A DNA stretch of 42,311 nucleotides from Candidatus Hydrogenedentota bacterium. GTDB taxonomy: Bacteria > Hydrogenedentota > Hydrogenedentia > Hydrogenedentales > JAEUWI01. Positions within the stretch are counted from its first letter, which is position 1; every line of letters starts with the position of its first letter. The stretch covers positions 1-42,311 of the forward strand of contig JACPGE010000121.1 of NCBI GenBank assembly GCA_016182605.1, written 5' to 3'. The notes below the pieces were generated by a model that worked only from the letters and a program-made list of their open reading frames with translations, was not told the DNA's origin and did not search any database. Of the stretch, positions 14,763 through 42,207 are shown one piece after another. The translations under genes were made by a program, and so were the position numbers.

Positions 14763-16352
14763 ATGGGCATGAAACGACTGATTTTCCCATCCCTCGCGAT
14801 AGTGTTGCTCTTCCTGACTGGAGGGGCAACGCGTCCCCGCGATGTGCCCGCCCTTACGGAGGTCCTCCTCCCCGAGCCGATCAACAATTCCACGATCTGG
14901 GCGTCGAACGATGCAAGCAGTCTGCGCATCGATCTGGTGGCGGTGCCGGACAGTCCCGGGGACACGGAGCGGGTGCGCTTTTTCTACAACAACGGATTCC
15001 TGTTGCAGGAGATCGGGACCGACACGACTTCGCCATACAGCACTTCGGTGAACTTTCAGTTCAGCATACCGTTCAACCAGACGGTGCAGTTCATTGCAAA
15101 TGCGAAGGCACTGTACGAAGAGAATTTCGAGGTGGAGGGCTTCACCAATATTGGCTTTCTGCCAATCAGCACCATCCAGGATTCCGATCTGAACGGCCTG
15201 CCCGACGAACCCTTTGTGCGCCTGAACAACACCGGGGATCGCTGGGCGGAAACGACCCAGTTCGCCGATACGGACTTCCGGGTTTTCAGCGGGCTGCACT
15301 ACATGGAGGGCGATGATTTCCGTGGGACGGAGGAGACGGTGCGGACGGTGGAACTGATCTTGACGAGCCGCAGCAATCCGGATCATCTGGCGTCGGTGCG
15401 CGCGAGCGAGTTGCTGCTCGACGACGACGAGGAGGCGGTGCTGATCGCCCAGATCTCGGCGGATCTCCCGAGCCTGGTGGGTGTGGAGACCAGCGACGAC
15501 GTCGATCCGCTTCCTGCGGGGAGCATCGGCGACAGCGGAGAGATGATGCATGTCAGCATTATCAAGACGGACGATTTCGGGGAGAGCTTTGATCCTATTG
15601 CCAATGCGGCGCTGATTGCCAACCCGGTGACGGTGCGGATGCAAGGGCTGCCGTTGAACTCGGGCTTCACCTACGGCTTCATGTTCTATCCCACAAGCAT
15701 CGTGGAAACGGAGAACCGGATTGTGGTTTCGGCGGCCCGGCGCGACGCATGGACGAGCCTGGCCGCGACTTCGGTCGATGTGGCCACAGGCAGTCTCACG
15801 ACGCGGATGACCCGATCCGGAATACTGGTTCCGTTTGTAACTGGAACGGGCGGTGAAGGAGAGGGCGAAGGGGAGGGAGAAGGTGAAGGCGAAGGAGAGG
15901 GGGAAGGTGAGGGCGAGGGAGAAGGGGGTAATGCGATCATCGACTATCTCTTGTCGCTGCTTCGTCCCGTGTTGTTGGCACTGGGTGTGATTTCGCTCAC
16001 GGACGGCGGTGTGGGCGGGGCGAGTGGCCCGTGCTTCATTGCGACGGCGGCGTACGGCACACCCCTTGCGCCCCAGCTTGACGTGCTGCGGAGTTTCCGC
16101 GACGCGTACCTGCTCGATTCCGCGCCAGGAACCGCGCTTGTGGACATCTATTATCACGTGAGCCCGGCTGTTGCGGATTGGATTGCTACGCAGCCCCTGC
16201 TTGCCGCGGTGGTGCGGCCGGTTATCCAGATTGCGATCTGGCTGGGGCAATGGCGCGGGGTTGTGTGGTCGATCGGGGCGGTTGTGCTGGCCGTGAACGC
16301 CGTTCGATGGATTCGCCGCCGCCTGCACGCGCCGATGCGCATGCCGGATTAG
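14763..16352 (+). CDS. Secreted protein with Gly-Glu linker and CFI-box C-terminal domain
   Basis: This 529-residue protein has a signal sequence (MKRLIFPSLAIVLLFLTGG) and a large extracellular strand-rich part with no family I recognise. About 12 Gly-Glu repeats follow at residues 364-388. Next comes a CFI-box domain, PCFIATAAYG starting at P423, and it ends with hydrophobic segments and an Arg-rich tail (WIRRRLH). CFI-box-CTERM domains are C-terminal modules thought to act in surface processing or anchoring. GGAG ten bases before 14763 supports that ATG; a second ATG lies six bases later. The stop overlaps the convergent gene's stop (TTAG). Confidence 0.75.
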   Translation: MGMKRLIFPSLAIVLLFLTGGATRPRDVPALTEVLLPEPINNSTIWASNDASSLRIDLVAVPDSPGDTERVRFFYNNGFLLQEIGTDTTSPYSTSVNFQFSIPFNQTVQFIANAKALYEENFEVEGFTNIGFLPISTIQDSDLNGLPDEPFVRLNNTGDRWAETTQFADTDFRVFSGLHYMEGDDFRGTEETVRTVELILTSRSNPDHLASVRASELLLDDDEEAVLIAQISADLPSLVGVETSDDVDPLPAGSIGDSGEMMHVSIIKTDDFGESFDPIANAALIANPVTVRMQGLPLNSGFTYGFMFYPTSIVETENRIVVSAARRDAWTSLAATSVDVATGSLTTRMTRSGILVPFVTGTGGEGEGEGEGEGEGEGEGEGEGEGEGGNAIIDYLLSLLRPVLLALGVISLTDGGVGGASGPCFIATAAYGTPLAPQLDVLRSFRDAYLLDSAPGTALVDIYYHVSPAVADWIATQPLLAAVVRPVIQIAIWLGQWRGVVWSIGAVVLAVNAVRWIRRRLHAPMRMPD

Positions 16353-17473
16353 CCGGGTCGGGCGGGGCTGTTGGCGACCGGAGCCGCCGTATCGTTCCAT
16401 TGCGCAATGGAGCGCCATTCCAGAGCGAAGTAGAGGATGCACAGCGTGGTGGTGAGGCCCACGACAGGCCGAACCCACTTTGGATGCCCCATCATTCCCT
16501 TCGCCAGTGCCGCCAATGCGATGCTGGCACCGAGGAGAGGCACGATCAGTACGCCGCCGCCCTCACCGCTGATCGGATCGACACTGTATCCCACACTAAA
16601 GAGGCGGAAAGTCGCGGCCAATGCAATCCCCAGCCAGAAGGCGGACTGACGCAGTTTGAACCCGATGATGATGGTGATGGCGATTCCCATCCCCAACGCG
16701 GCGGCATAGTGGATGGGGGATTCGTGGAAACGCGCGACGGTCTCCGGGAGCAGGCCGATGGGGTAGACGAGTAGAAAGAGGGGGGTGAAGAACTGATCGA
16801 GCACCGCGGCGGGAATTCCGGAGCGGAGCAGGCCCGCAATGGCCAGAGGCAACCCTATCCCGGCGTAGGGCAGGACACGCCACCAGGGCCGCGCGCTATC
16901 CCCGGGCAGGGTGAGAAGGAGGAGCGGATACGCGCAGAAGAGTCCGGCGTATGCCGGGAAGAAGGGCGCCACAAGCAGGAAGCTGAGCAGGGAGAGGGCA
17001 TACCAGACCGTTTTCCGCTTCAAGACAATGGCACAATGAAAAGCGAGCAGGGAGAACAGCGCGAGCAAGGCCGGGAGGAGGTGCTGGATCCCGGTGAGCA
17101 TGAGCACGGCATCGTTTTTCATGGGGTTTGCCATGAGGATGGCGATCCCGAAGGATCCCAGCCAGATGGGACCGCGCACGGTGGCATTGATGAGGGCATA
17201 GGCCACGACGAGAATGGCATAGAGGAGGAGCAGATTGAGGAAGAGGTATCCAGCCTCGAAGTCGCCAAAGAGTTGCCGCATCAAGACGACAGCCCGCGCG
17301 GCGGGCACAGGCAGGGCATCGGCGTTGGAAAAGAGGGCCTGATCCGCGGGGGTGGGGCCGAGCGTCCACACCCGGGCATGGACCACGGCGAGGTAGAACA
17401 GGTTTGCCAGAAGAAATGCGCCGTGGGTGGCTTTCAATGGGCTTCGTGAGTTCTTCTTTGGCGGTAGATCCAT
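16349..17473 (-). CDS. Polytopic membrane protein, unknown function
   Basis: This encodes 374 residues with about ten hydrophobic segments, a short charged N-terminus (MDLPPKKNSRSPLKATHG) and few conserved polar residues. The organisation recalls glycosyltransferase-like or O-antigen-type membrane proteins (DUF-type mannosyltransferases), but I see no DxD or other decisive motif. The frame is open upstream to 17563, yet the charged stretch and first membrane segment favour the ATG at 17473. It converges on the CFI-box gene with a 4-base overlap of stop codons. Confidence 0.65.
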   Translation of the reverse strand: MDLPPKKNSRSPLKATHGAFLLANLFYLAVVHARVWTLGPTPADQALFSNADALPVPAARAVVLMRQLFGDFEAGYLFLNLLLLYAILVVAYALINATVRGPIWLGSFGIAILMANPMKNDAVLMLTGIQHLLPALLALFSLLAFHCAIVLKRKTVWYALSLLSFLLVAPFFPAYAGLFCAYPLLLLTLPGDSARPWWRVLPYAGIGLPLAIAGLLRSGIPAAVLDQFFTPLFLLVYPIGLLPETVARFHESPIHYAAALGMGIAITIIIGFKLRQSAFWLGIALAATFRLFSVGYSVDPISGEGGGVLIVPLLGASIALAALAKGMMGHPKWVRPVVGLTTTLCILYFALEWRSIAQWNDTAAPVANSPARPG

Positions 17474-17617
17474 GGCGGCTGAGTCTACCGGGCACCGGGG
17501 CTTGATGCAAATTGTGGCAGGACGCGCCGGGTTCAAGAAGCAGAAAGGATCGGGGGATCGCAATGGGCATTTGCCCCTCCGCTCTTGCTACCATAGGCCT
17601 TCAGCAGGAGTTTGTGC

Positions 17618-20479
17618 ATGCATTCATTGCTACTTGGGGTCTGCCTGGTATTCATAACCGGTCTGAGTGGGGCAGTTCAGGCCGATGTATTTGAAGGCGC
17701 GGAATGGCTTCGCGATCCGCGCATGGACGGTCATCCCATCGCGGATTACTATGGCCGGGAAGCGGCACCACCGCCCAAGGTCGTCACGCCCGCCAATCTA
17801 CACACGCTCTTCCGGGGCTTTCTCCCGCTCTTTTCAAAGCCCGATCGCGCCGTGCTGCATATCACGGCGGACGATTACTTCAAGTGTTATATCAACGGCT
17901 ACTACGTGGCGCAGGGACCGGAGCCCACGTATCCCTTCGCCCATGCCTACCTGACGCTGGACGTAACGGCATTGCTGGAGGCCGGTCCGAATGTGCTGGC
18001 GGCGCAATGTTACTATCAGGGCCGGCGCAACCGGGTGTGGAACAGCGGCGACAACCGGTCAGGGTTTATCGCGGTGCTGGAGCTGGCGTTTGCCGATGGC
18101 AAGACGCAGCGTTATGCGACAACGGAGCATTGGCGGTGCCTGCCGCTGGACGCGTCGATAACGGAGCGCACTTTTGGATACGAGACCCAGTTTGCGGAGG
18201 ACATGGATCTGTCGCGCATTCCCCGGGGCTGGCAGTTTGCAAATTTCGACGATCGCGGCTGGCAGGCGCCCTTCGTGGACATGCAGGATCACCGCTTTGT
18301 TCCCTCCGACATTCCACCGTTGCAGCGCTACCGCCTCGACCCTGTGCTGAAGAAGAAACGGGACGATGGCACCCTGTTCTTTGATTTCGGGAAAGAGATT
18401 GTGGGGCACACCGCGTTCAGGACCAAAGGTAATGCGAACCAGGAGGTGCGTATCCGGCATGCGGAAGAGTTGCTGGAACCCGATGTGGCGCGCTACAAGA
18501 TGCGCGCTTCCAAGTGCGACTACGAAGAATCCCTCTTCCTGACCGGCAATGAGGACAAGTACGAGTTCTATGATTACCGGGGCTTTCGCTATGTGGAGGC
18601 GCTCAACGCGCCCGAAGACTTCGAGCTATGGGCCGAAGTGCGCCACTACCCGCTGCCTGCGGAGCCGGCTGTTTTCAATTCGGGCAATACCCTGGTGCAG
18701 CAGATCTGGGATATCTGCCAGAACGGCGTCGTCATGGGCTCGCAGGGGGGATTTCTGGATTGCCCGACGCGGGAGAAGGGACAGTATCTCGGCGATGCCT
18801 TGATTGCGTCGCGCGCCCACCGGTGGATCACGGGGGATGCGCGGTTGACGGGCAAGGCCGTGAAAGATTTCGCCTTGTCCCGCATTGCACATGCAGGTCT
18901 GATGGCCGTGGCGCCGGGCAATTTCATGCAGGAAATTGCAGAGTACTCGCTCCAGTATCCTTTACTCGTGCAAGACTATTATCAGCATTCCGGCGACGCC
19001 ACCCTGAGCACAACGGTCGTCCAAGAGGTATTTCCGGGAATATTCGATTATTTTGCCACCTTCGAAAACGAGTCCGGACTCCTGGTGGGCATGAACAAGC
19101 CCGAGAAATGGCTCCTGGTGGACTGGCCCGCCAGTTTGCGCGACGGCTATGAATACTCCCTGTCCGAAAGGGACGGCAACACGGTTTTGAATGCCTTTTA
19201 TTATGGGGCGTTGACGACGGCTGCGGCCCTGAGCGGCGAGCTGGGTCTGGATGGTGCTGCCTACACCACGCGCGCGGATCGGGTACGACTGGCGATACAA
19301 AGTCAGCTTATCGACGCGACAACCGGGCTCTACATTGATGCTCCCGGTTCGTCCCACAGTTCACTGCATGCCAACGCGGTACCGCTTTTTTTTGGATTGA
19401 CGGACGGGGTCAATCTGGAGGCCGTCTGGAAGATGGTGGGGGAGAAGGGGCTGAACTGCGGGGTCTATATGGCGGCCTTCCTGATTGAGGCGTGCTTCAA
19501 GAACGGCGCGGCCGACCTGGCGTGGCGGCTGATCAATGCGGAGGACGAACACTCCTGGCAGGAGATGATCAGGAGCGGCGCAACCGCCTGCATGGAAGTG
19601 TGGGGCCCCGATCAGAAGGGAAACACAAGCTGGTGCCACCCCTGGAGCAGCAGCCCGGTTTACCTGATCACGGAATATGTGCTTGGGATCCAACCCGGCG
19701 CGCCCGGCTGGACCAGCATACGTATTGCGCCGGCTCGCATCCGGAACCTTCCGCCCATGCAGGTGGATTTACCCATTCCTGGCGGCCGGGTGCAGGTTAA
19801 CTACGCGCCGGGCAAAGGTTATACTGTGCTTGCGCCCAAAGAGATCGAGGTGTTGGCGCAAGCCCCTGAAGGAGAACGCATGAGTGTGAACGGCGAGGCT
19901 CTGCAGAGCACGGCGGCAGCCCCCGCATCCATCGACACGGATTTGCTCGCCGCACGGGGCTGGGAACAGCGCGTGGGGACCGGTCTGGGGGTGTGGGTGG
20001 ATGCGGCCACGCAGCGGTTCATTGTGTTGCAGGGCAAGGAGGTGCTTTGGCAGGCCGCCTGTGCCACGGCAGAGAACGGCACGGGTCAGGAAGAGGGCAG
20101 CTTGCAAACACCGCTCGGGTGGCACACGGTAGATACGAAACTGGGTGAAGGCGCCCCGTGGGGACAGGTCTTCCGGTCGCGCGCGGCGGCGAAGGAGGTC
20201 TGGAAGCCTGGGGACGATACGAAAGAAGATTTGGTGCTCACGCGCGTCTTGTGGCTTAGCGGATTGGAGGCGGGGGTGAATCAGGGTAAGAACGCCGAAG
20301 GCAAAGTGGTGGATTCCAAACAGCGCCACATTTACATCCACGGAACGAACGGGGAAGATCGGATCGGCACGCCTTCGTCCCACGGGTGTATTCGTCTCTA
20401 CAATGACGATGTAATCAAGGCCTTTGATATGCTGCCGGTGGGCACGCCCGTGCTGATCACGAACGGCGCCGGAAACTAA
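17618..20479 (+). CDS. GH78 alpha-L-rhamnosidase fused to an L,D-transpeptidase (YkuD) domain
   Basis: This 953-residue exported protein starts with a signal peptide (HSLLLGVCLVFITGLSGAVQA). Residues about 25-330 are the jelly-roll domains of bacterial rhamnosidases (DDYFKCYINGYYVAQGPEPT, FDFGKEIVGH). The catalytic alpha-barrel (about 340-690) contains FLDCPTREKGQYLGDAL with D381, R385 and E386 in the region where GH78 has its acidic residues, and later CMEVWGPDQKGNTSWCHPW. After a C-terminal beta domain (about 690-765), residues about 790-953 match an L,D-transpeptidase catalytic domain with IHG and SSHGCIRL (H922, C924, R926). AGGAG seven bases upstream supports the ATG at 17618. The reading frame is uninterrupted. 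The joining of rhamnosidase and peptidoglycan cross-linking domains is very unusual. Confidence 0.85.
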   Translation: MHSLLLGVCLVFITGLSGAVQADVFEGAEWLRDPRMDGHPIADYYGREAAPPPKVVTPANLHTLFRGFLPLFSKPDRAVLHITADDYFKCYINGYYVAQGPEPTYPFAHAYLTLDVTALLEAGPNVLAAQCYYQGRRNRVWNSGDNRSGFIAVLELAFADGKTQRYATTEHWRCLPLDASITERTFGYETQFAEDMDLSRIPRGWQFANFDDRGWQAPFVDMQDHRFVPSDIPPLQRYRLDPVLKKKRDDGTLFFDFGKEIVGHTAFRTKGNANQEVRIRHAEELLEPDVARYKMRASKCDYEESLFLTGNEDKYEFYDYRGFRYVEALNAPEDFELWAEVRHYPLPAEPAVFNSGNTLVQQIWDICQNGVVMGSQGGFLDCPTREKGQYLGDALIASRAHRWITGDARLTGKAVKDFALSRIAHAGLMAVAPGNFMQEIAEYSLQYPLLVQDYYQHSGDATLSTTVVQEVFPGIFDYFATFENESGLLVGMNKPEKWLLVDWPASLRDGYEYSLSERDGNTVLNAFYYGALTTAAALSGELGLDGAAYTTRADRVRLAIQSQLIDATTGLYIDAPGSSHSSLHANAVPLFFGLTDGVNLEAVWKMVGEKGLNCGVYMAAFLIEACFKNGAADLAWRLINAEDEHSWQEMIRSGATACMEVWGPDQKGNTSWCHPWSSSPVYLITEYVLGIQPGAPGWTSIRIAPARIRNLPPMQVDLPIPGGRVQVNYAPGKGYTVLAPKEIEVLAQAPEGERMSVNGEALQSTAAAPASIDTDLLAARGWEQRVGTGLGVWVDAATQRFIVLQGKEVLWQAACATAENGTGQEEGSLQTPLGWHTVDTKLGEGAPWGQVFRSRAAAKEVWKPGDDTKEDLVLTRVLWLSGLEAGVNQGKNAEGKVVDSKQRHIYIHGTNGEDRIGTPSSHGCIRLYNDDVIKAFDMLPVGTPVLITNGAGN

Positions 20480-20491
20480 CGCGGATTGGAG

Positions 20492-23400
20492 ATGCCACGC
20501 GGCAGGGAGAGGGAATTGCGCAAACGGCCTGTGCCAAAGGCAGTGTTGATCCTGCTTCTGCTGGGCGTGCAGGCGGTGGGTGCGGCTCAGGAGTCTCTGG
20601 ACACCCTATTGCTGCGCGGCTATGTGGCGCATTGGCTCGTTTGCGGCCCGTTTGCGAGCGATCTTCCCAATGGCATTTTAGCGGCGGCTACGGGGGGCAC
20701 GGCGGCGCTGGGCGCGACGGATTATCAGACACCGGCAGGGGGTGTGGCGCGGGTGCGGCCCCAACATCTGCTTGCGATACCGACGCCGGGGGGCGAGGCG
20801 ATTTGGCAGGAGGCGGGCACGCAATCGCGCTTCCTGGATTTGGCGCCTTTTTTTGAGAGCAGCAGTGAAGGCGTTTCCTATGCGGCGTTCTATATCCGGT
20901 GCGATCGCAACCGGACGGTGCTGATGGAGTTGAAGACGCTGCTCGGGGCACGGGTGTGGCTCAATGGATTTCCGGTGAGCGATATTTCCGGGCAGCCCAT
21001 CCAGAGTATGGGCGTTACACAAAAGCTGATTACCTTTCGTCAGGGCCAGAACCTGCTCCTTATCGAGCTGCCGGGACTACGATTCGAGACCCTGAGTCAG
21101 GCCTACGAGCTGCCGCCGCGGGCCTTCGGCGCGCAGTATCTCGCCAACCGTCCGGAGTTGCAAAACAGCAGTGGATTCTCATTTCATTTCCGGCTGCGCC
21201 CTGCAGCGCCCGTGGGCAGCGTGGCGTATATCACGGAACTGGATGAGACGGGCACCTTTTCCGGTTCGAAGTTCGATATCCGGCAAGACGCCCTATTAAC
21301 CCTCTTCAACTACGGCAAAGAGAAGTCGGGGCCGGTGAAGGTCAACTACAGTGTGCCGGGCGCCCTGGAGCCGGTGGAGATCACCGTGCCGCCCTTTGAT
21401 GTGGAGACCGTTCAAACGGTTCCCCTGGCGCTTCCGATTATGGCGCGCGCGCCGGGAGAGACGATTCCGGTGGAAGCCACCCTCGTTCATGGCGAAGCGA
21501 CGGCGACGCTGAAGGCGCCGGTTACGGTTCGGCCAGTGGCCCCGGATGGGCGGGTCTATGTGGTCACGGGGGCGCGATTTTATCCTGAGTTTGCGCTTTC
21601 GCAACGGGATGCCCAGATCCGTTTTCAGGAGGGCCTGGAGCGCCAGAGCCTGCTCTTAAAGCAAGAACCCAACTACGGCATGGACTTGGGCTATGTGTCT
21701 GACTGGCTGCCGCGGCTGTCGCACGATCCGGAAATGCTTAAGGCGATGAAGATCAGCGTGGCTGCGGGACAGTCTGGAACGCGCCTGGGCTTGGCGCAGC
21801 CTGACGCGCGCATCGTGGGGGGCGAAACGCTTTTCCGCAATCTCGTGCTGGGCGCTCTGGCGGCACAACGCTTCCTGGAGGATCCGAGTCCTTCGTACGT
21901 CTCGTGGTCGGATGGCGGTATCGCGCCGCAGATGCCCCAGATGCTCAATCAGTTCTCGCAGAGCGGTGTGCTGAGCAATGCCGATGTGACGGGCCTGCCC
22001 GCGCTGAGCCAACAGACGGCTCCCAGCGGCGCCACCGTGCTGCACCGGCGGAAGCGGCCCTCTCCGGGTCCCGCGACGGCAGACGAGCTTCGCCGTGCCA
22101 TAGCGCTTCAGCGGCAGGAGATTATCGGACTCGGAATAGCCGCAGATGTACTCGTAGTGGAGAATCTGCTGAAGCCGCCCGAACCCTTTTACTTTGGCGC
22201 CTCTCAGGCGCTGGCGCGCAACTTTCCCTCCATTCGCATTCAGGGCAATGGGATCAATGCGTTTACAGGAGAAGTATTGCAGGGCCATGCCAGCGCACTT
22301 CCATTGTTGCTGCACAGCAGCCGTCCGCTGAATATCGAAGGGCTCGGCGCGGCCAGCGTACACCCGGAATTGAAGCAGGCCTTTGCGTTTGCGGAATCGC
22401 AGTTGTTGCTCGCGGAACCCCTGGCCACGTGGGCGGCACTGGAGGGGGCGGTTTACCCGCATGAAACGCTGGACCATGCCTGGCGCGCGTTGATCGCCCA
22501 CAGCACACCGGCCTTCCTGGGGGCGCCGGTGCAAGCGGAAAACTATGTGGAGGCGCATCGCGCCTATGCCCAATTGCTTACCGGCGTGCGCGAAGTGCAA
22601 CTGAATTCGCTCAGGTATATTGCCAACGAAGCCGACACCCTCCAGGGCGCGCCCGCAGGCACGACACCCGCCGCGGCCATCGTGGTTTACAATCCCGTGG
22701 CCACTACACGCAATGCGCCATGCAGCGTGGACGTGACGCTCGAAGGCGTGCCCGGTATCGGTCTGGTGGATGCGCAGGGCGTGGCAGTGCCGTTTCTTGC
22801 GGAGCAAACGGTCTACGGTACCGCGGGCGCGCTTCAATCGGCGAGATTGACCTTTGTCGCGCGGGATCTCCCCGCCATGGGTTATCAGACGTACTATATG
22901 TTGCCGGAAGGATCCTTGAGCGAGGCGTCGGTGCTGGACGAACGGCAAATCGAAAGCAGCCGTTTCCTGCTCAACACGAGCATGCAGGATGGCTCCATTC
23001 TGCGTTTTCTCGACAAGAGCACGGGGCTCGAAATTGCAGGGGATGGCCTGGACAGGGTGACGCTGCTGGCCATGGGAGAATCCGGCGCGACACCCGATGA
23101 GGTGGTATTGCGGCCGGAATCGACCCGTGAGAGCCCGGGGCCGCCGCAGGCGGAGTTGCGCAAGACCTCATGGATGCAGACCCTGCGTTTGGTGAGCCCG
23201 TTTGCAGGCGGCAAACTGACGCGCCGCTATACCGTATATGAAGACGTGCCCTACGTGGAATGCCAGTTGGAGATAGAAGGCGCCTCTCTCGGCGGCCACG
23301 TGCTGGCTGTCACGCACGCACCGCTCTATGAGGGTCAATCCCTCCGCTATGGGGAACGGGATGCGGCGCTGCTGGGGGCTCCGAATCTGAAACAGGACTC

Positions 23401-25252
23401 GCTCATCACGCGAGGCCACGACCGCCCCACGGGGAGCGCGCTCTATCCGGCGTATCAATGGGTGGCGAGTACGCCGGATGTGTCGGTGGAGGTGGGGAGA
23501 GCGGGCGCGGTACCGCTTCTACCGGCCACGATTCATTTTGGCAGCAAGGACGTGCTGCGCGATGCCGCGCGCATACTGCAACAGGCCCTGGCCCGGAAAG
23601 GGGTGACGGCGGCACTTCAGGCGGATGCCATTCAGCCGCCCAATCCCCTGTGGACGGATTCGACGGAACTGCTCGACTTCAACGACTGGCAATACCATGG
23701 CGCGCCCATGCGTTTTCTGGTGGGCGGGCCCGATTCGAATCTGCTGTCGAAGGCCCTGCTGGAAGCCGCGCCACCGGACATCCAGGCGGAATTCGAACGC
23801 CGGCAGACGCAGGATGTGCTCTTGTTCTTGATGGACAACGCGGTGCCTGAGGGCGCTCCGGCCCGGCCGGTCTTTCTTTTTGCGGGACCCAGCAGCGTCC
23901 ATATTCACGAACTGGTGACCCGCATCGCCCGGGAACTCGATACACGGGACACCTTTTCCTTGCCGGTATCGGCCTATCTTGCGGGCACGCCGCCAGAACC
24001 GCTGACGCAGGGGCTCGCGGTGCTCTTCCCTGGCGCACGCACGGCCGCGATGGACCCCGACGGCACATTGTGGCAGATCCTGGGGCAATGGGCGGGGGAA
24101 GAAATGGAGACGGGGCTGATAGCGCCGCCGGGCGCGCCGGTGCGGTTTCAGCATGCATTGGCGCCGTTGAATGGCACGTGGCGGGACGCGCATGTGCCAC
24201 AGTTGGCGCAGGGTTACAGCCAGCCCGTGCTTGCGGTGCAAACGGGATTGCATGGGGGGAGGCAACCGATCCGGCAATCCTTTTTGACGAGTCCCCAGCC
24301 CAACCTGTTGATTCAGAGTGTGAAGCCTGTGGGGTATCCACTGTCCCAATTGTCCGCCGAGCGCCCCACACCGAGAGATGGAGTGATTGTGCGTGCGGTC
24401 GAGAGTGAGGGGCGGAACAGTGCGGGCGATCTGAGCTGGTACGCGCCGCTCAGCGGCGCCGCGGGTGCGAGCCCACTCGATGAGATTCGGGAGCGCATCG
24501 AAACGGTGGAGAACCGGCTTCCGGTGACGCTCGCGCCCTGGCAGATTGCATCGTGGTGGTGTATCCCAGTGTCACGCGCGAAGATGGGCGATCCCGTTTC
24601 GCTGGAAGCAACAAATCCGAGTCTATTGGAGCACAGCAAATTCTGGGAATATAATCTGGGTTCGGCGCCGCCGGGAAATGCGCCACTTGACTTGAGCCTC
24701 GACGGTTACCTGGAGGGCAACAGCCCGCAGATCCGGGTAGGTCTGGTGAATCACACAAATCGTATTGCCCAGGGCGCCATTTTCCTGCAGGGATCGGCCG
24801 ATCTGAGTGTGGGTCCGGGCCAGCTTTATTATCAACTGGCGCCCGGGGAATCGATGCTGGAGAATCTGGAAGTAGTACCGCTCCAGGAACAGGAGCATAG
24901 CGGCATTGTGGCCTATACGGAATGGAACGGGAAGATCCTTCGGGAGGTGATGCACCGGCAGGAAGGGCCCTTTGAAGTGAATGCCGCGCGGAGCGAGGCC
25001 CAAATCACGGTGGAAATCGCCAATCGCAGTGGTATTCCCGTGGTGGGCACGGCGGAACTTATTATGGAGACACCGGAAGCGGTGGAGTACGGACGAGGGG
25101 GGCCGATTCCGCCCATGGCACGGCAAACCGTGGAAGTCGCGCCGTTTAACAGTGTGAAGTATTTTTTTGCCGCGGACAGCGTCCAGGACCGGCGTTGGCG
25201 GGTAGTCAAAGTGGCAGCGAACGGAGAGGTTGCCTATAATACGGTTCCGTAG
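20492..25252 (+). CDS. Giant secreted GH38-like protein with degenerate active-site motifs
   Basis: This 1586-residue protein has an N-terminal hydrophobic export signal (KAVLILLLLGVQAVGAAQ). Residues about 40-230 form a galactose-binding-like sandwich (FYIRCDRNRTVLMELKTLLG). From about 360 it resembles GH38 alpha-mannosidases: NYGMDLGY at 394-401 sits where the family has the metal-binding H-x-D, SDGGIAPQMPQ with D474 resembles the nucleophile segment, and YPHETLDHAWRALIAHSTPAF near W664 resembles the helical middle domain, where HD is expected. A long beta-sandwich C-terminal half follows. The expected histidines look absent, so it may be inactive or act differently. It starts 12 bases after the rhamnosidase gene, probably one operon. 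Start choice (ATG at 20492) is uncertain; GGAG is adjacent. Confidence 0.65.
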   Translation: MPRGRERELRKRPVPKAVLILLLLGVQAVGAAQESLDTLLLRGYVAHWLVCGPFASDLPNGILAAATGGTAALGATDYQTPAGGVARVRPQHLLAIPTPGGEAIWQEAGTQSRFLDLAPFFESSSEGVSYAAFYIRCDRNRTVLMELKTLLGARVWLNGFPVSDISGQPIQSMGVTQKLITFRQGQNLLLIELPGLRFETLSQAYELPPRAFGAQYLANRPELQNSSGFSFHFRLRPAAPVGSVAYITELDETGTFSGSKFDIRQDALLTLFNYGKEKSGPVKVNYSVPGALEPVEITVPPFDVETVQTVPLALPIMARAPGETIPVEATLVHGEATATLKAPVTVRPVAPDGRVYVVTGARFYPEFALSQRDAQIRFQEGLERQSLLLKQEPNYGMDLGYVSDWLPRLSHDPEMLKAMKISVAAGQSGTRLGLAQPDARIVGGETLFRNLVLGALAAQRFLEDPSPSYVSWSDGGIAPQMPQMLNQFSQSGVLSNADVTGLPALSQQTAPSGATVLHRRKRPSPGPATADELRRAIALQRQEIIGLGIAADVLVVENLLKPPEPFYFGASQALARNFPSIRIQGNGINAFTGEVLQGHASALPLLLHSSRPLNIEGLGAASVHPELKQAFAFAESQLLLAEPLATWAALEGAVYPHETLDHAWRALIAHSTPAFLGAPVQAENYVEAHRAYAQLLTGVREVQLNSLRYIANEADTLQGAPAGTTPAAAIVVYNPVATTRNAPCSVDVTLEGVPGIGLVDAQGVAVPFLAEQTVYGTAGALQSARLTFVARDLPAMGYQTYYMLPEGSLSEASVLDERQIESSRFLLNTSMQDGSILRFLDKSTGLEIAGDGLDRVTLLAMGESGATPDEVVLRPESTRESPGPPQAELRKTSWMQTLRLVSPFAGGKLTRRYTVYEDVPYVECQLEIEGASLGGHVLAVTHAPLYEGQSLRYGERDAALLGAPNLKQDSLITRGHDRPTGSALYPAYQWVASTPDVSVEVGRAGAVPLLPATIHFGSKDVLRDAARILQQALARKGVTAALQADAIQPPNPLWTDSTELLDFNDWQYHGAPMRFLVGGPDSNLLSKALLEAAPPDIQAEFERRQTQDVLLFLMDNAVPEGAPARPVFLFAGPSSVHIHELVTRIARELDTRDTFSLPVSAYLAGTPPEPLTQGLAVLFPGARTAAMDPDGTLWQILGQWAGEEMETGLIAPPGAPVRFQHALAPLNGTWRDAHVPQLAQGYSQPVLAVQTGLHGGRQPIRQSFLTSPQPNLLIQSVKPVGYPLSQLSAERPTPRDGVIVRAVESEGRNSAGDLSWYAPLSGAAGASPLDEIRERIETVENRLPVTLAPWQIASWWCIPVSRAKMGDPVSLEATNPSLLEHSKFWEYNLGSAPPGNAPLDLSLDGYLEGNSPQIRVGLVNHTNRIAQGAIFLQGSADLSVGPGQLYYQLAPGESMLENLEVVPLQEQEHSGIVAYTEWNGKILREVMHRQEGPFEVNAARSEAQITVEIANRSGIPVVGTAELIMETPEAVEYGRGGPIPPMARQTVEVAPFNSVKYFFAADSVQDRRWRVVKVAANGEVAYNTVP

Positions 25253-39166: not shown

Positions 39167-40357
39167 TCAAACTTTCGGGCACCCGTCCTTCTTCCAGTCG
39201 GGAACCGTATCCGATTCATCTACTTTGTCGTCCCAAATTGGGTCGTCCTCGTAGCACCCATCATCTTTGCAGGTATATTCCGTGATTGGACCCGGGTCAT
39301 AGAATTTGTCACCGCAGCACATCCCGTCACAATCTCCATTATGACATTCCCCAGGCTTTAACAGCACCCAATCTGCCTCATCCAAAATGTACACTGGCTT
39401 TTTTGAGTAGTTGCAGCACCTGCCCCCGAGGGGCCAAGTCCACTTCCTCAATCCAAGACGATCAGTATTGCGAGTGGGGCTTCCCCCCACATACCCATAC
39501 ACATTCGGCCCATCCACCATCCCCAGCGGGTCGCGCGTGGTCCATCTCCCCATCCCGGGGCTGTAGTAGCGGTAGGGGAAGAAGTACAAGCCATCCTCCG
39601 CGTCGTAGCTCTTGCCGGTGAAGGTGTGGGGCATCGTGACCCCGCTCGCGGCATAGACCTCCCCGTAGGGCGTGTGCTCGTTTGACGCGATCACCGCCTT
39701 GCTCTGGTGGTGCAGCGCGCGCGTGGAGCCGAGGTGGTCGTGGAAGTAGTACTGGTAATTCCCCGTGGCGGGCGCCGTGCCGCCCACGTCCGCGAGGATG
39801 CGCGACACGCTGCCGCCGGGCGTGTGCGTATACGTCCGCTCCAGCGCGCCCACGTCCCAGATCGTCGTGGTGCCGGGGTAGTCCGCGTACTCCGCCAGCA
39901 CATTCCACCCCAGGTCCCACCGGTACCAAGACCACTCCGACGAGTTCACCACCTTGAAGCGCCGCTTGCCCAGGCCGTCATACATATATTCCACCAGCGC
40001 CGCCTCCCCGGGAAAGGTCGAAGTGACCATCTTCAGCTTGTCGCCGTAGCGGTAGAAATACTCCGCCTCATAGCTGCCCTGCGTCTTCGTGCTCAGCCGC
40101 CCCCAATCGTCATACGTGAACGAGGTCGTCACCCCGTCCTCCGTCATCGACGTCATCTCGTTCGCGTCGTTGTACGCGTAGGTGGCGCTGTGCGGGTCCG
40201 CCGTGGTGAAAACCACGTCATCCACCCAGTACCGCGACACCGAAAGCGTCTGCAATTGGATATACGCGCTGCTCATCATCGTCACGCTGTTCAACGCTCC
40301 CAGCAGTTCCATCGTCCCGCCCGCCGTCCCCCGCCAGACCTCTACGTGATCGCCCAC
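39167..40357 (-). CDS. Orphan Rhs core fragment with cysteine-rich tip (tip 2), 5'-truncated
   Basis: This 396-residue frame is an Rhs/YD-repeat core (TYDDWGRLSTKTQGSYEAEY, YMYDGLGKRRFKVV) ending in the conserved RHS-associated core motif (YYSPGMGRWTTRDPLG...NVYGYV...RLGL). After that come about 93 variable residues rich in cysteine (RCCNYS, CDGMCC, DDGCYEDD), the likely toxin-like tip. The core is a near copy of the one at 41269-42123. It lacks an N-terminal part: an in-frame TGA lies 30 bases upstream of the GTG at 40357. Such displaced core-tip fragments act as a reservoir of tips for recombination onto a full-length Rhs gene. The activity of the tip is not recognisable. Confidence 0.75.
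   Translation of the reverse strand: MGDHVEVWRGTAGGTMELLGALNSVTMMSSAYIQLQTLSVSRYWVDDVVFTTADPHSATYAYNDANEMTSMTEDGVTTSFTYDDWGRLSTKTQGSYEAEYFYRYGDKLKMVTSTFPGEAALVEYMYDGLGKRRFKVVNSSEWSWYRWDLGWNVLAEYADYPGTTTIWDVGALERTYTHTPGGSVSRILADVGGTAPATGNYQYYFHDHLGSTRALHHQSKAVIASNEHTPYGEVYAASGVTMPHTFTGKSYDAEDGLYFFPYRYYSPGMGRWTTRDPLGMVDGPNVYGYVGGSPTRNTDRLGLRKWTWPLGGRCCNYSKKPVYILDEADWVLLKPGECHNGDCDGMCCGDKFYDPGPITEYTCKDDGCYEDDPIWDDKVDESDTVPDWKKDGCPKV
39488..40342 (-). repeat. 855-bp duplicated Rhs core, copy 2
   Basis: Colinear and equal in length with 41269-42123, with scattered substitutions (for example KRRFKVV against KRRIKVV). Similarity ends abruptly at both boundaries. Confidence 0.85.
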
Positions 40358-40436
40358 GGCGATGAAATAAATTTGTACATATTGTCAGCCCGGAAATTCA
40401 TCCAGAGAATTTCGTAGTCTACCCTGGAAATACCGG

Positions 40437-40946
40437 TTACTGCCTCTTATTTTCGCCAGGTGTGCGATCCAACAAGTCGAGACTGCTACCATTAACTGGT
40501 CCATCAATCGTCTCTATCGACAGCGTCTCACCACACCAAGCCTTGGCAACAAGTACACCCCGTTCGTCAATCATAAACTGCATAGCGTAGAAAACGAATG
40601 GAAGTTGCTTGCAAGACTCTACTTCGTTCGGCACGTCTATTTCGGAAGATCGATCTCTAAAAGATAGAAAGTAGTAAATCTTATATTGCCCAAAACTAAC
40701 TACTGCATGTGGTTCCCGGTCACTCGGCGAAAAGACTGTTCCAATTTCACATTTCTTGTAGAACCTCAAGTGTTCGCCCCGATAAAAAACGAGTGCTTTC
40801 CAAATTGCGAAACACACAACTAAGAGCACAGTGAAAATCATGAGTTTGCGAATGGCCCAGTTCAATGACGACCGTCCCAAGCCAAATCCAATTTCATAAG
40901 ATTCACCATCCACGCTCGCGACACTTTTCTGTGCAGTAGTCATCAT
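40437..40946 (-). CDS. Single-pass membrane protein, candidate immunity protein of the first Rhs tip
   Basis: This 169-residue protein has one transmembrane segment (LMIFTVLLVVCFAIWKALVFY) after about 34 residues and a soluble C-terminal domain. It overlaps the end of the first Rhs fragment by 44 bases, suggesting coupled expression. An internal Met just before the membrane segment is an alternative start. It sits between the two Rhs cores, where an immunity gene is expected. No family is recognised, so the role is inferred from position. Confidence 0.55.
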   Translation of the reverse strand: MMTTAQKSVASVDGESYEIGFGLGRSSLNWAIRKLMIFTVLLVVCFAIWKALVFYRGEHLRFYKKCEIGTVFSPSDREPHAVVSFGQYKIYYFLSFRDRSSEIDVPNEVESCKQLPFVFYAMQFMIDERGVLVAKAWCGETLSIETIDGPVNGSSLDLLDRTPGENKRQ

Positions 40947-42207
40947 TATCCTCGTCGCACTTTGGAGCAGAAATATTTACAGCATCGTCTCCAGCGACTA
41001 TATCCATATCCGAATCCTCCGACGAAGGCCCCAAGGCCTCAAACACTCTATTGGCAATATATGCTGCCAGTATTCCTCCAATACTCCCAAGACATCTTTT
41101 CGCCTCACATACTGCGACACAGTGCCTAATACTGGACGTAGCTCCTGTGGCATGGTCAGCAATATGATAGGCCTTCAAAAGGCAGTCCTCGCCATACGGG
41201 CCCGGTCCCGGATATGTGTCCCTGATGGACAAACCTAAGAGGTCTTTATTCACAGAAACTCGTGCATTCACATACCCATACATATTCGCCCCATCCACCA
41301 TCCCCAGCGGATCCCGCGTGGTCCACCGTCCCATCCCGGGGCTATAGTAGCGGTAGGGGAAGTAATACAGCCCGGCCTCCGCGTCGTAGCTCTTGCCGGT
41401 AAAGGTGTGGGGCATGGGCGCGCCACTCGCGGCGTAGACGTCCCCGTAGGGCGTGTGTTCGTTCGACGCGATCATCGCCTTGCTCTGATTGTGCAGCGCG
41501 CGCGCGGAGCCGAGGTGGTCGTGGAAGTAGTACTGGTAATTCCCCGTGGCGGGCGCGGTGCCGCCCACATCGCCCAGGATGCGCGAGACGCTTCCGCCGG
41601 GCGTGTGCGTATACGTGCGCTCCAGCGCGCCCACGTCCCAGATGCTCGTGGTGCCGGGGTAGTCCGCGTACTCCGCCAGCACATTCCACCCCAGGTCCCA
41701 CCGGTACCAGGTCCACTCCGACGAGTTCACCACCTTGATGCGCCGCTTGCCGAGGCCGTCATACATATACTCCACCAGCGCGGCCTCCCCGGGGAAGGTG
41801 GAGGTGACCATCTTCAGCTTGTCGCCATAGCGGTAGAAATACTCCGCCTCATAGCTGCCCTGCGTCTTCGTACTCAGCCGCCCCCAATCGTCATAGGTGA
41901 ACGACGTCGTCACCCCATCCTCCGTCATCGACGTCATCTCGTTCGCGTCGTTGTACGCGTAGGTGGCGCTGTGCGGGTCCGCCGTGGTGAAGACCACATC
42001 GTCCACCCAGTACCGCGACACCGACAGTGTCTGCAATTGGATATACGCGCTGCTCATCATCGTCACGCTGTTCAACGCTCCCAGCAGTTCCATCGTCCCG
42101 CCCGCCGTCCCCCGCCAGACCTCCAGCCGGCTGCCATCCAACCGGACCGATAGATTGTACCACGTATCCAGCGCCGTGTCCGCGCTCAACAGGCAGGGCA
42201 ATCGCAT
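40903..42207 (-). CDS. Rhs core fragment with small cysteine-containing tip (tip 1), 5'-truncated
   Basis: This 434-residue frame carries a short LamG-like edge (WYNLSVRLDGSRLEVWRG), the same Rhs core as the second copy, and the closing motif ...NMYGYV...DLLGL. About 108 variable residues follow with seven cysteines (RHCVAVCEAKRCLG, CDEDNDDYCTEKC) and a central hydrophobic helix. Upstream of the ATG at 42207 an in-frame TAG occurs within 30 bases. The sequence just upstream reads on sensibly in another frame (YEVPVTGSFNAIALP), so a frameshift or recombination junction near 42190 is likely. The full-length Rhs parent, if any, lies beyond the window. Confidence 0.75.
   Translation of the reverse strand: MRLPCLLSADTALDTWYNLSVRLDGSRLEVWRGTAGGTMELLGALNSVTMMSSAYIQLQTLSVSRYWVDDVVFTTADPHSATYAYNDANEMTSMTEDGVTTSFTYDDWGRLSTKTQGSYEAEYFYRYGDKLKMVTSTFPGEAALVEYMYDGLGKRRIKVVNSSEWTWYRWDLGWNVLAEYADYPGTTSIWDVGALERTYTHTPGGSVSRILGDVGGTAPATGNYQYYFHDHLGSARALHNQSKAMIASNEHTPYGDVYAASGAPMPHTFTGKSYDAEAGLYYFPYRYYSPGMGRWTTRDPLGMVDGANMYGYVNARVSVNKDLLGLSIRDTYPGPGPYGEDCLLKAYHIADHATGATSSIRHCVAVCEAKRCLGSIGGILAAYIANRVFEALGPSSEDSDMDIVAGDDAVNISAPKCDEDNDDYCTEKCRERGW
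41269..42123 (-). repeat. 855-bp duplicated Rhs core, copy 1
   Basis: Direct duplicate of 39488-40342. The boundaries fall at the end of the YGYV region on one side and within GGTCTGGCGG on the other. Confidence 0.85.

What the first reader, a model, noticed from the sequence alone, without database searches (positions are those of the whole stretch)
17618..20479. Alpha-L-rhamnosidase fused to an L,D-transpeptidase
One uninterrupted frame joins a GH78 enzyme to a YkuD domain with an intact SHGCIR motif. I know of no described protein of this type. It could tether or cross-link the hydrolase to peptidoglycan, or couple rhamnose-polymer trimming to wall attachment.
Basis: partly seen in the sequence, partly recalled or inferred. 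Interest (0 to 1): 0.8.

Follow-up and report, generated by a model that had tools for sequence, protein, structure and literature searches.

The report
Rhamnosidase fused to wall-peptide (YkuD) enzyme
In the little-known bacterial phylum Hydrogenedentota, one exported protein joins a sugar-cleaving rhamnosidase to an enzyme that trims or links the peptides of the cell wall; the join is real, old and found in about half of the related genomes, but other relatives have lost the sugar-cleaving half and kept only the wall half.

Summary
One frame (17612-20479 +, 955 aa from TTG; 953 from the ATG at 17618) carries a signal-peptide-like start, a complete GH78 alpha-L-rhamnosidase and a YkuD domain, with the catalytic residues of both in place. 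It is not an assembly join. The same full-length fusion (43-57% identity) occurs in 30 of 60 YkuD copies analysed across Candidatus Hydrogenedentota, in 8 family-level groups. The YkuD half is the constant part: an ElsL-like domain, present in 38 of 38 good genomes, nearly always single copy. It appears fused to intact GH78 (30), to a GH78 remnant without catalytic residues (5), to ankyrin repeats (1), split (1) or without GH78 (23). Within one genus, collinear loci differ only by 2.2 kb of GH78 between signal peptide and YkuD. So the fusion is a dispensable, repeatedly lost coupling. Best reading: an exported two-site envelope enzyme in which a housekeeping YkuD acts on stem peptides (L,D-carboxypeptidase suspected; LdcA is missing from 67 of 68 genomes) and a purifying-selected GH78 removes rhamnose from an unknown glycan nearby. 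Covalent tethering by YkuD has no support. The held literature describes no such protein. New variant of known kinds.

The parts
17612..20479 (+). GH78-YkuD fusion gene, 955 aa (TTG start; in-frame ATG at 17618)
   Evidence: single open frame; orthologous full-length fusions
17612..17683 (+). predicted signal peptide, residues 1-24 (...SGAVQA|DVFEG)
   Evidence: hydrophobic stretch near the N-terminus here and in the other complete fused frames; cleavage site by eye, no signal-peptide predictor available
17837..18325 (+). GH78 N-terminal domain PF08531 (residues 76-238)
   Evidence: 1.8e-14
18356..18613 (+). GH78 concanavalin-like domain PF05592 (residues 249-334)
   Evidence: 1.3e-10
18668..19681 (+). 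GH78 six-hairpin catalytic domain PF17389 (residues 353-690)
   Evidence: 1.3e-41; Foldseek 2okx E 6.4e-42
18758..18796 (+). GH78 catalytic residues D383, E388 (general acid), D395
   Evidence: align with D567/E572/D579 of BsRhaB 2okx (roles from general knowledge); E388 and D395 in 28/28, D383 in 27/28 fused proteins
19595..19597 (+). GH78 E662, equivalent of BsRhaB E841 (general base)
   Evidence: 28/28 fused proteins
19682..19867 (+). GH78 C-terminal beta domain (residues ~691-752)
   Evidence: phmmer alignment to 2okx up to residue 756; predicted strands 693-749; PF17390 hit in a relative
19868..19960 (+). variable inter-domain linker (residues ~753-783)
   Evidence: pLDDT below 50 at 763-771; dN/dS 0.13-0.67 against 0.06-0.24 in the two domains
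19991..20458 (+). YkuD domain PF03734, ElsL-like (residues 794-949)
   Evidence: model pLDDT 96.3, best fold match B. subtilis YkuD
20339..20389 (+). YkuD active-site motif HGTN...SHGCIR, H910 and nucleophile C926
   Evidence: H910 and C926 invariant in all aligned copies

Best explanation
It is an exported two-enzyme protein of the Hydrogenedentota envelope. The C-terminal YkuD domain is the phylum's near-universal, usually single-copy ElsL-like cysteine enzyme, and most likely works on murein stem peptides outside the cytoplasm: probably cutting the L,D bond of tetrapeptides (carboxypeptidase), or otherwise transferring that bond (transpeptidase). The N-terminal GH78 is a catalytically competent alpha-L-rhamnosidase module that removes terminal L-rhamnose from a glycan present in the same compartment. 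The two sites act independently on different substrates, joined by a loose linker; the gain of the fusion is shared export and placement near the wall. Shown by sequence: the fusion, conservation of both active sites, purifying selection on both domains, and in-place presence or absence of GH78. Inferred: export, activity, substrates and the benefit of the join.
For: Catalytic residues of both domains are conserved in 28 fused proteins with readable GH78. dN/dS in seven pairs is 0.07-0.24 for GH78 and 0.06-0.21 for YkuD, higher in the linker. YkuD is present in 61/68 genomes and 38/38 good ones. All 35 aligned YkuD domains match the ElsL model. S66 LdcA is absent from 67/68 genomes and VanY hits are few and weak, 5/68, which leaves this protein the leading L,D-carboxypeptidase candidate. 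N-termini are hydrophobic. Collinear loci in one genus differ by GH78 alone. GH78 and YkuD distances correlate over the 28 fused proteins (r 0.65, 0 of 5000 permutations reach it), as expected of long shared descent.
Against: The ElsL match (118 bits) is below the curated cut-off of 270, and ElsL itself is cytoplasmic and leaderless (PMC8649774), so carboxypeptidase activity is unproven. Solved structures nearest in fold are transpeptidases. No neighbouring gene points to the rhamnose substrate, and no operon is conserved. The r of 0.65 partly reflects species relatedness. The window's own GH78 groups with an unfused GH78 of another family, while its YkuD groups with its own family, so this particular GH78 may have been exchanged.
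Confidence: 0.6

Rival explanations
1. The YkuD half is a true L,D-transpeptidase (3-3 cross-links or protein attachment) rather than a carboxypeptidase; the rest is as in the best explanation.
For: YkuD fold with nearest solved structures all transpeptidases or YkuD; exported like transpeptidases, unlike ElsL.
Against: The best whole-length family model is ElsL, and transpeptidase models match only the last ~45 residues. The same genome has two other YkuD proteins, of 426 and 510 aa. LdcA is missing from the phylum.
Confidence: 0.3
2. The YkuD domain serves mainly to hold or covalently attach the rhamnosidase to peptidoglycan.
For: Same polypeptide and same export; the YkuD domain must bind stem peptides.
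Against: YkuD is kept alone or with dead GH78 remnants in 28 of 60 copies, so it is not there for GH78. Self-attachment is not a known YkuD reaction (general knowledge).
Confidence: 0.1
3. The protein is cut in the linker after export and works as two separate enzymes.
For: Low-confidence and weakly constrained linker; separate genes in some relatives.
Against: No cleavage motif was identified; not testable here.
Confidence: 0.15
4. The GH78 half is a non-catalytic binding module or passenger on its way to loss.
For: Five relatives keep a GH78 remnant without E388 and E662 joined to an intact YkuD; GH78 is absent at many YkuD loci.
Against: In every full-length fusion read the catalytic acids E388 and E662 are conserved, and GH78 is under purifying selection comparable to YkuD's.
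Confidence: 0.1
5. Assembly or frameshift artefact joining two genes.
For: None found.
Against: Same join in 30 genomes from independent assemblies.
Confidence: 0.005

Closest known systems
GH78 alpha-L-rhamnosidases (Bacillus sp. GL1 RhaB, PDB 2okx)
   Same: Domain order, fold (Foldseek 6.4e-42) and catalytic residues
   Different: About 18% identity; no YkuD domain; substrate of this clade unknown. Close unfused relatives lie in Lentisphaeria, Kiritimatiellae and Paenibacillus
ElsL, YkuD-type L,D-carboxypeptidase of Acinetobacter baumannii (PMC8649774)
   Same: Best whole-length curated match of the YkuD half; serves a species lacking LdcA
   Different: ElsL is a stand-alone, leaderless cytoplasmic protein; this one is fused and carries an export signal; score 118 against a cut-off of 270
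L,D-carboxypeptidase Csd6 of Helicobacter pylori (PMC4599014, abstract only)
   Same: An L,D-carboxypeptidase that trims peptidoglycan peptides, as is proposed here; YkuD-type by general knowledge
   Different: Different accessory parts; not compared by sequence here
B. subtilis YkuD (1y7m)
   Same: Best fold match; also shows that SKGC in place of SHGC occurs naturally
   Different: About 20% identity; no GH78

Membership tests
GH78 | GH78 Pfam domains above cut-off, in order | tested here: met
GH78 | Catalytic acids (BsRhaB D567, E572, D579, E841) | tested here: met
   D383, E388, D395, E662
GH78 | alpha-L-rhamnosidase activity | not testable with these tools
   needs assay
YkuD superfamily (L,D-transpeptidase catalytic domain) | YkuD domain above cut-off with His and Cys of HGT...SHGC | tested here: met
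   H910 and C926
YkuD superfamily (L,D-transpeptidase catalytic domain) | YkuD fold | tested here: met
   (TM ~0.5, E 8.7e-9)
YkuD superfamily (L,D-transpeptidase catalytic domain) | L,D-transpeptidase activity | not testable with these tools
   needs assay
ElsL L,D-carboxypeptidase (NF040925) | Score above the curated cut-off (270 bits) | tested here: not met
   118 bits, although it matches model positions 8-158 of 164
ElsL L,D-carboxypeptidase (NF040925) | Leaderless, cytoplasmic | tested here: not met
   hydrophobic signal-like N-terminus
ElsL L,D-carboxypeptidase (NF040925) | Tetrapeptide to tripeptide activity | not testable with these tools
   needs assay

The most novel reading that the evidence does not exclude
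A wall-remodelling enzyme with two coordinated sites: Hydrogenedentota carry a rhamnose-bearing polymer on or near their peptidoglycan, GH78 trims it, and the ElsL-like domain edits the stem peptides at the same place, so that the pair marks a so far undescribed rhamnosylated envelope polymer in this phylum.
Probability: 0.15. Interest if true: 0.75.

Novelty: new variant of a known kind. Interest (0 to 1): 0.45.

Why it matters
Joining an exo-glycosidase to a murein-peptide enzyme links two processes usually treated apart. Because close relatives have the same locus with an intact, dead, split or absent GH78, they form a natural set of experiments for asking what the join is for. It also points to an exported ElsL-like enzyme as the likely L,D-carboxypeptidase of a phylum without LdcA.

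Tried and rejected
Assembly artefact: rejected. Covalent self-tethering: no support. A conserved operon that would name the substrate: none; the GH38-like neighbour recurs in only 4 of the loci fetched. Fusion outside the phylum: among the 80 best of 311 GH78 relatives in GTDB, only records that belong to Hydrogenedentota by name or by the phylum scan match over the full length (the lower-ranked ones were not seen). In 247 genomes of a spirochaete's phylum (8 hits) and 289 of a Kiritimatiellae genome's phylum (112 hits), the frames read out held ElsL-like domains without GH78 (most of the 112 were judged by frame length only). Rooting the YkuD tree with those sequences left the deep order unresolved, so 'one early fusion then many losses' is favoured but not proven against repeated fusion. 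Change of the His in SHGC (M, Q or K in some copies) was considered as inactivation and set aside: B. subtilis YkuD has SKGC.

Full report
What is there. The frame 17612-20479 (+) is open throughout and encodes 955 aa: a hydrophobic start ending ...SGAVQA|DV, three GH78 domains (PF08531 76-238, PF05592 249-334, PF17389 353-690), a C-terminal beta domain, a linker of about 30 residues and a YkuD domain (794-949). AlphaFold2 gives a good two-part model (pLDDT 81.6, pTM 0.72, linker 763-771 below 50). Its best solved match is rhamnosidase B 2okx (6.4e-42), and B. subtilis YkuD also appears. The YkuD half alone models at pLDDT 96.3, with B. subtilis YkuD and mycobacterial transpeptidases as the nearest folds.

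Where it comes from. Records of the orthologues are named Candidatus Hydrogenedentota. The window is one contig of a 6.8 Mb genome.

It is not an artefact. In 60 genomes of the order, full-length matches at 43-57% identity lie in single frames. In the 68 genomes held of the phylum, the same YkuD subfamily is found in 61, and in 38 of 38 good ones, one copy each except G060 with two. I read 60 copies: 30 fused to full GH78 (4 of them cut by a contig end), 23 without GH78, 5 with a GH78 remnant, 1 split, 1 with ankyrin repeats. The fused ones fall in eight family-level groups. The 'split' copy (G030) could be a frameshift in a draft genome. One copy counted as 'without GH78' (G056) shares a frame with a membrane protein at a contig start.

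Active sites. Against 2okx, D383, E388, D395 and E662 fall on D567, E572, D579 and E841 (the roles of those residues are from general knowledge). In 28 fused proteins E388, D395 and E662 are invariant, and D383 is E in one; H910 and C926 are invariant. The H of SHGC varies (M, Q, K) in some; B. subtilis YkuD itself has SKGC. In the five remnants E388 and E662 are gone while YkuD is intact.

Both halves are used. In seven pairs dN/dS is 0.07-0.24 (GH78) and 0.06-0.21 (YkuD), against 0.13-0.67 in the linker where it could be computed.

Gain and loss in place. L057 (G049, fused) and L138 and L134 (G047 and G055, same genus, no GH78) are collinear on both sides; the difference is about 2.2 kb between the signal-peptide region and YkuD, and the leader sequences of G049 and G055 still resemble each other. 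On the YkuD tree the fused label needs 15 changes, 8 forced by well-supported branches. On the GH78 tree, several unfused GH78 of the phylum nest among fused ones (G039, G053, G057, the second GH78 of G005, G030), which fits loss of YkuD or fission. GH78 and YkuD distances correlate (r 0.65, 0 of 5000 permutations). I favour one early fusion followed by repeated loss, but the deep branches do not settle it.

Window's own copy. Its YkuD groups with its family, its GH78 with an unfused GH78 of G013 on a long branch; exchange of the GH78 part is possible.

What the YkuD half does. All 35 aligned domains match NF040925 (ElsL), the window's copy along nearly the whole model with 118 bits against a cut-off of 270; transpeptidase models match only the end of the window's domain. 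ElsL is a cytoplasmic carboxypeptidase that serves a species without LdcA (PMC8649774). Here S66 LdcA is missing from 67 of 68 genomes and VanY hits are few and weak, but the protein has an export signal. An exported L,D-carboxypeptidase is my first choice, a transpeptidase the second. The genome has two further YkuD proteins.

What the GH78 half does. Probably an exo-rhamnosidase; the substrate is unknown, and neighbouring genes do not reveal it.

Literature. No paper in the held library contains both YkuD and GH78, or transpeptidase, rhamnosidase and YkuD; the library lacks most subscription journals.

Verdict. A real, conserved, lineage-restricted fusion of two known families, the GH78 half being optional. 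Confirmed as an observation; function inferred.

Noticed in passing
window 20486-25252 (+): 1588-aa gene seven bases downstream with a weak GH38 alpha-mannosidase middle-domain match; homologues near the YkuD locus in three other genomes (G006, G028, G035).
   Followed up: partly
window 16349-17563 (-): Divergent multi-spanning membrane protein with no Pfam family; homologues near the YkuD locus in several genomes, and in L140 (G056) one frame joins its homologue to YkuD at a contig start.
   Followed up: partly
L146 4295-5887 (-): Ankyrin repeats fused to the same ElsL-like YkuD domain (G018).
   Followed up: partly
L257, L263, L265: Outside the phylum, an ElsL-like YkuD domain in one frame with a C-terminal stretch that looks like a HAD-type (SerB-like) phosphatase (by eye, no profile search).
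   Followed up: no
whole phylum, 68 genomes: S66 L,D-carboxypeptidase LdcA is absent from 67 of 68 genomes.
   Followed up: yes
L157 4395-6587 (-): Second, unfused GH78 beside the fused gene in G005, likely a tandem copy without YkuD.
   Followed up: partly
window 39167-42207 (-): Two frames with RHS repeats at the contig end.
   Followed up: no
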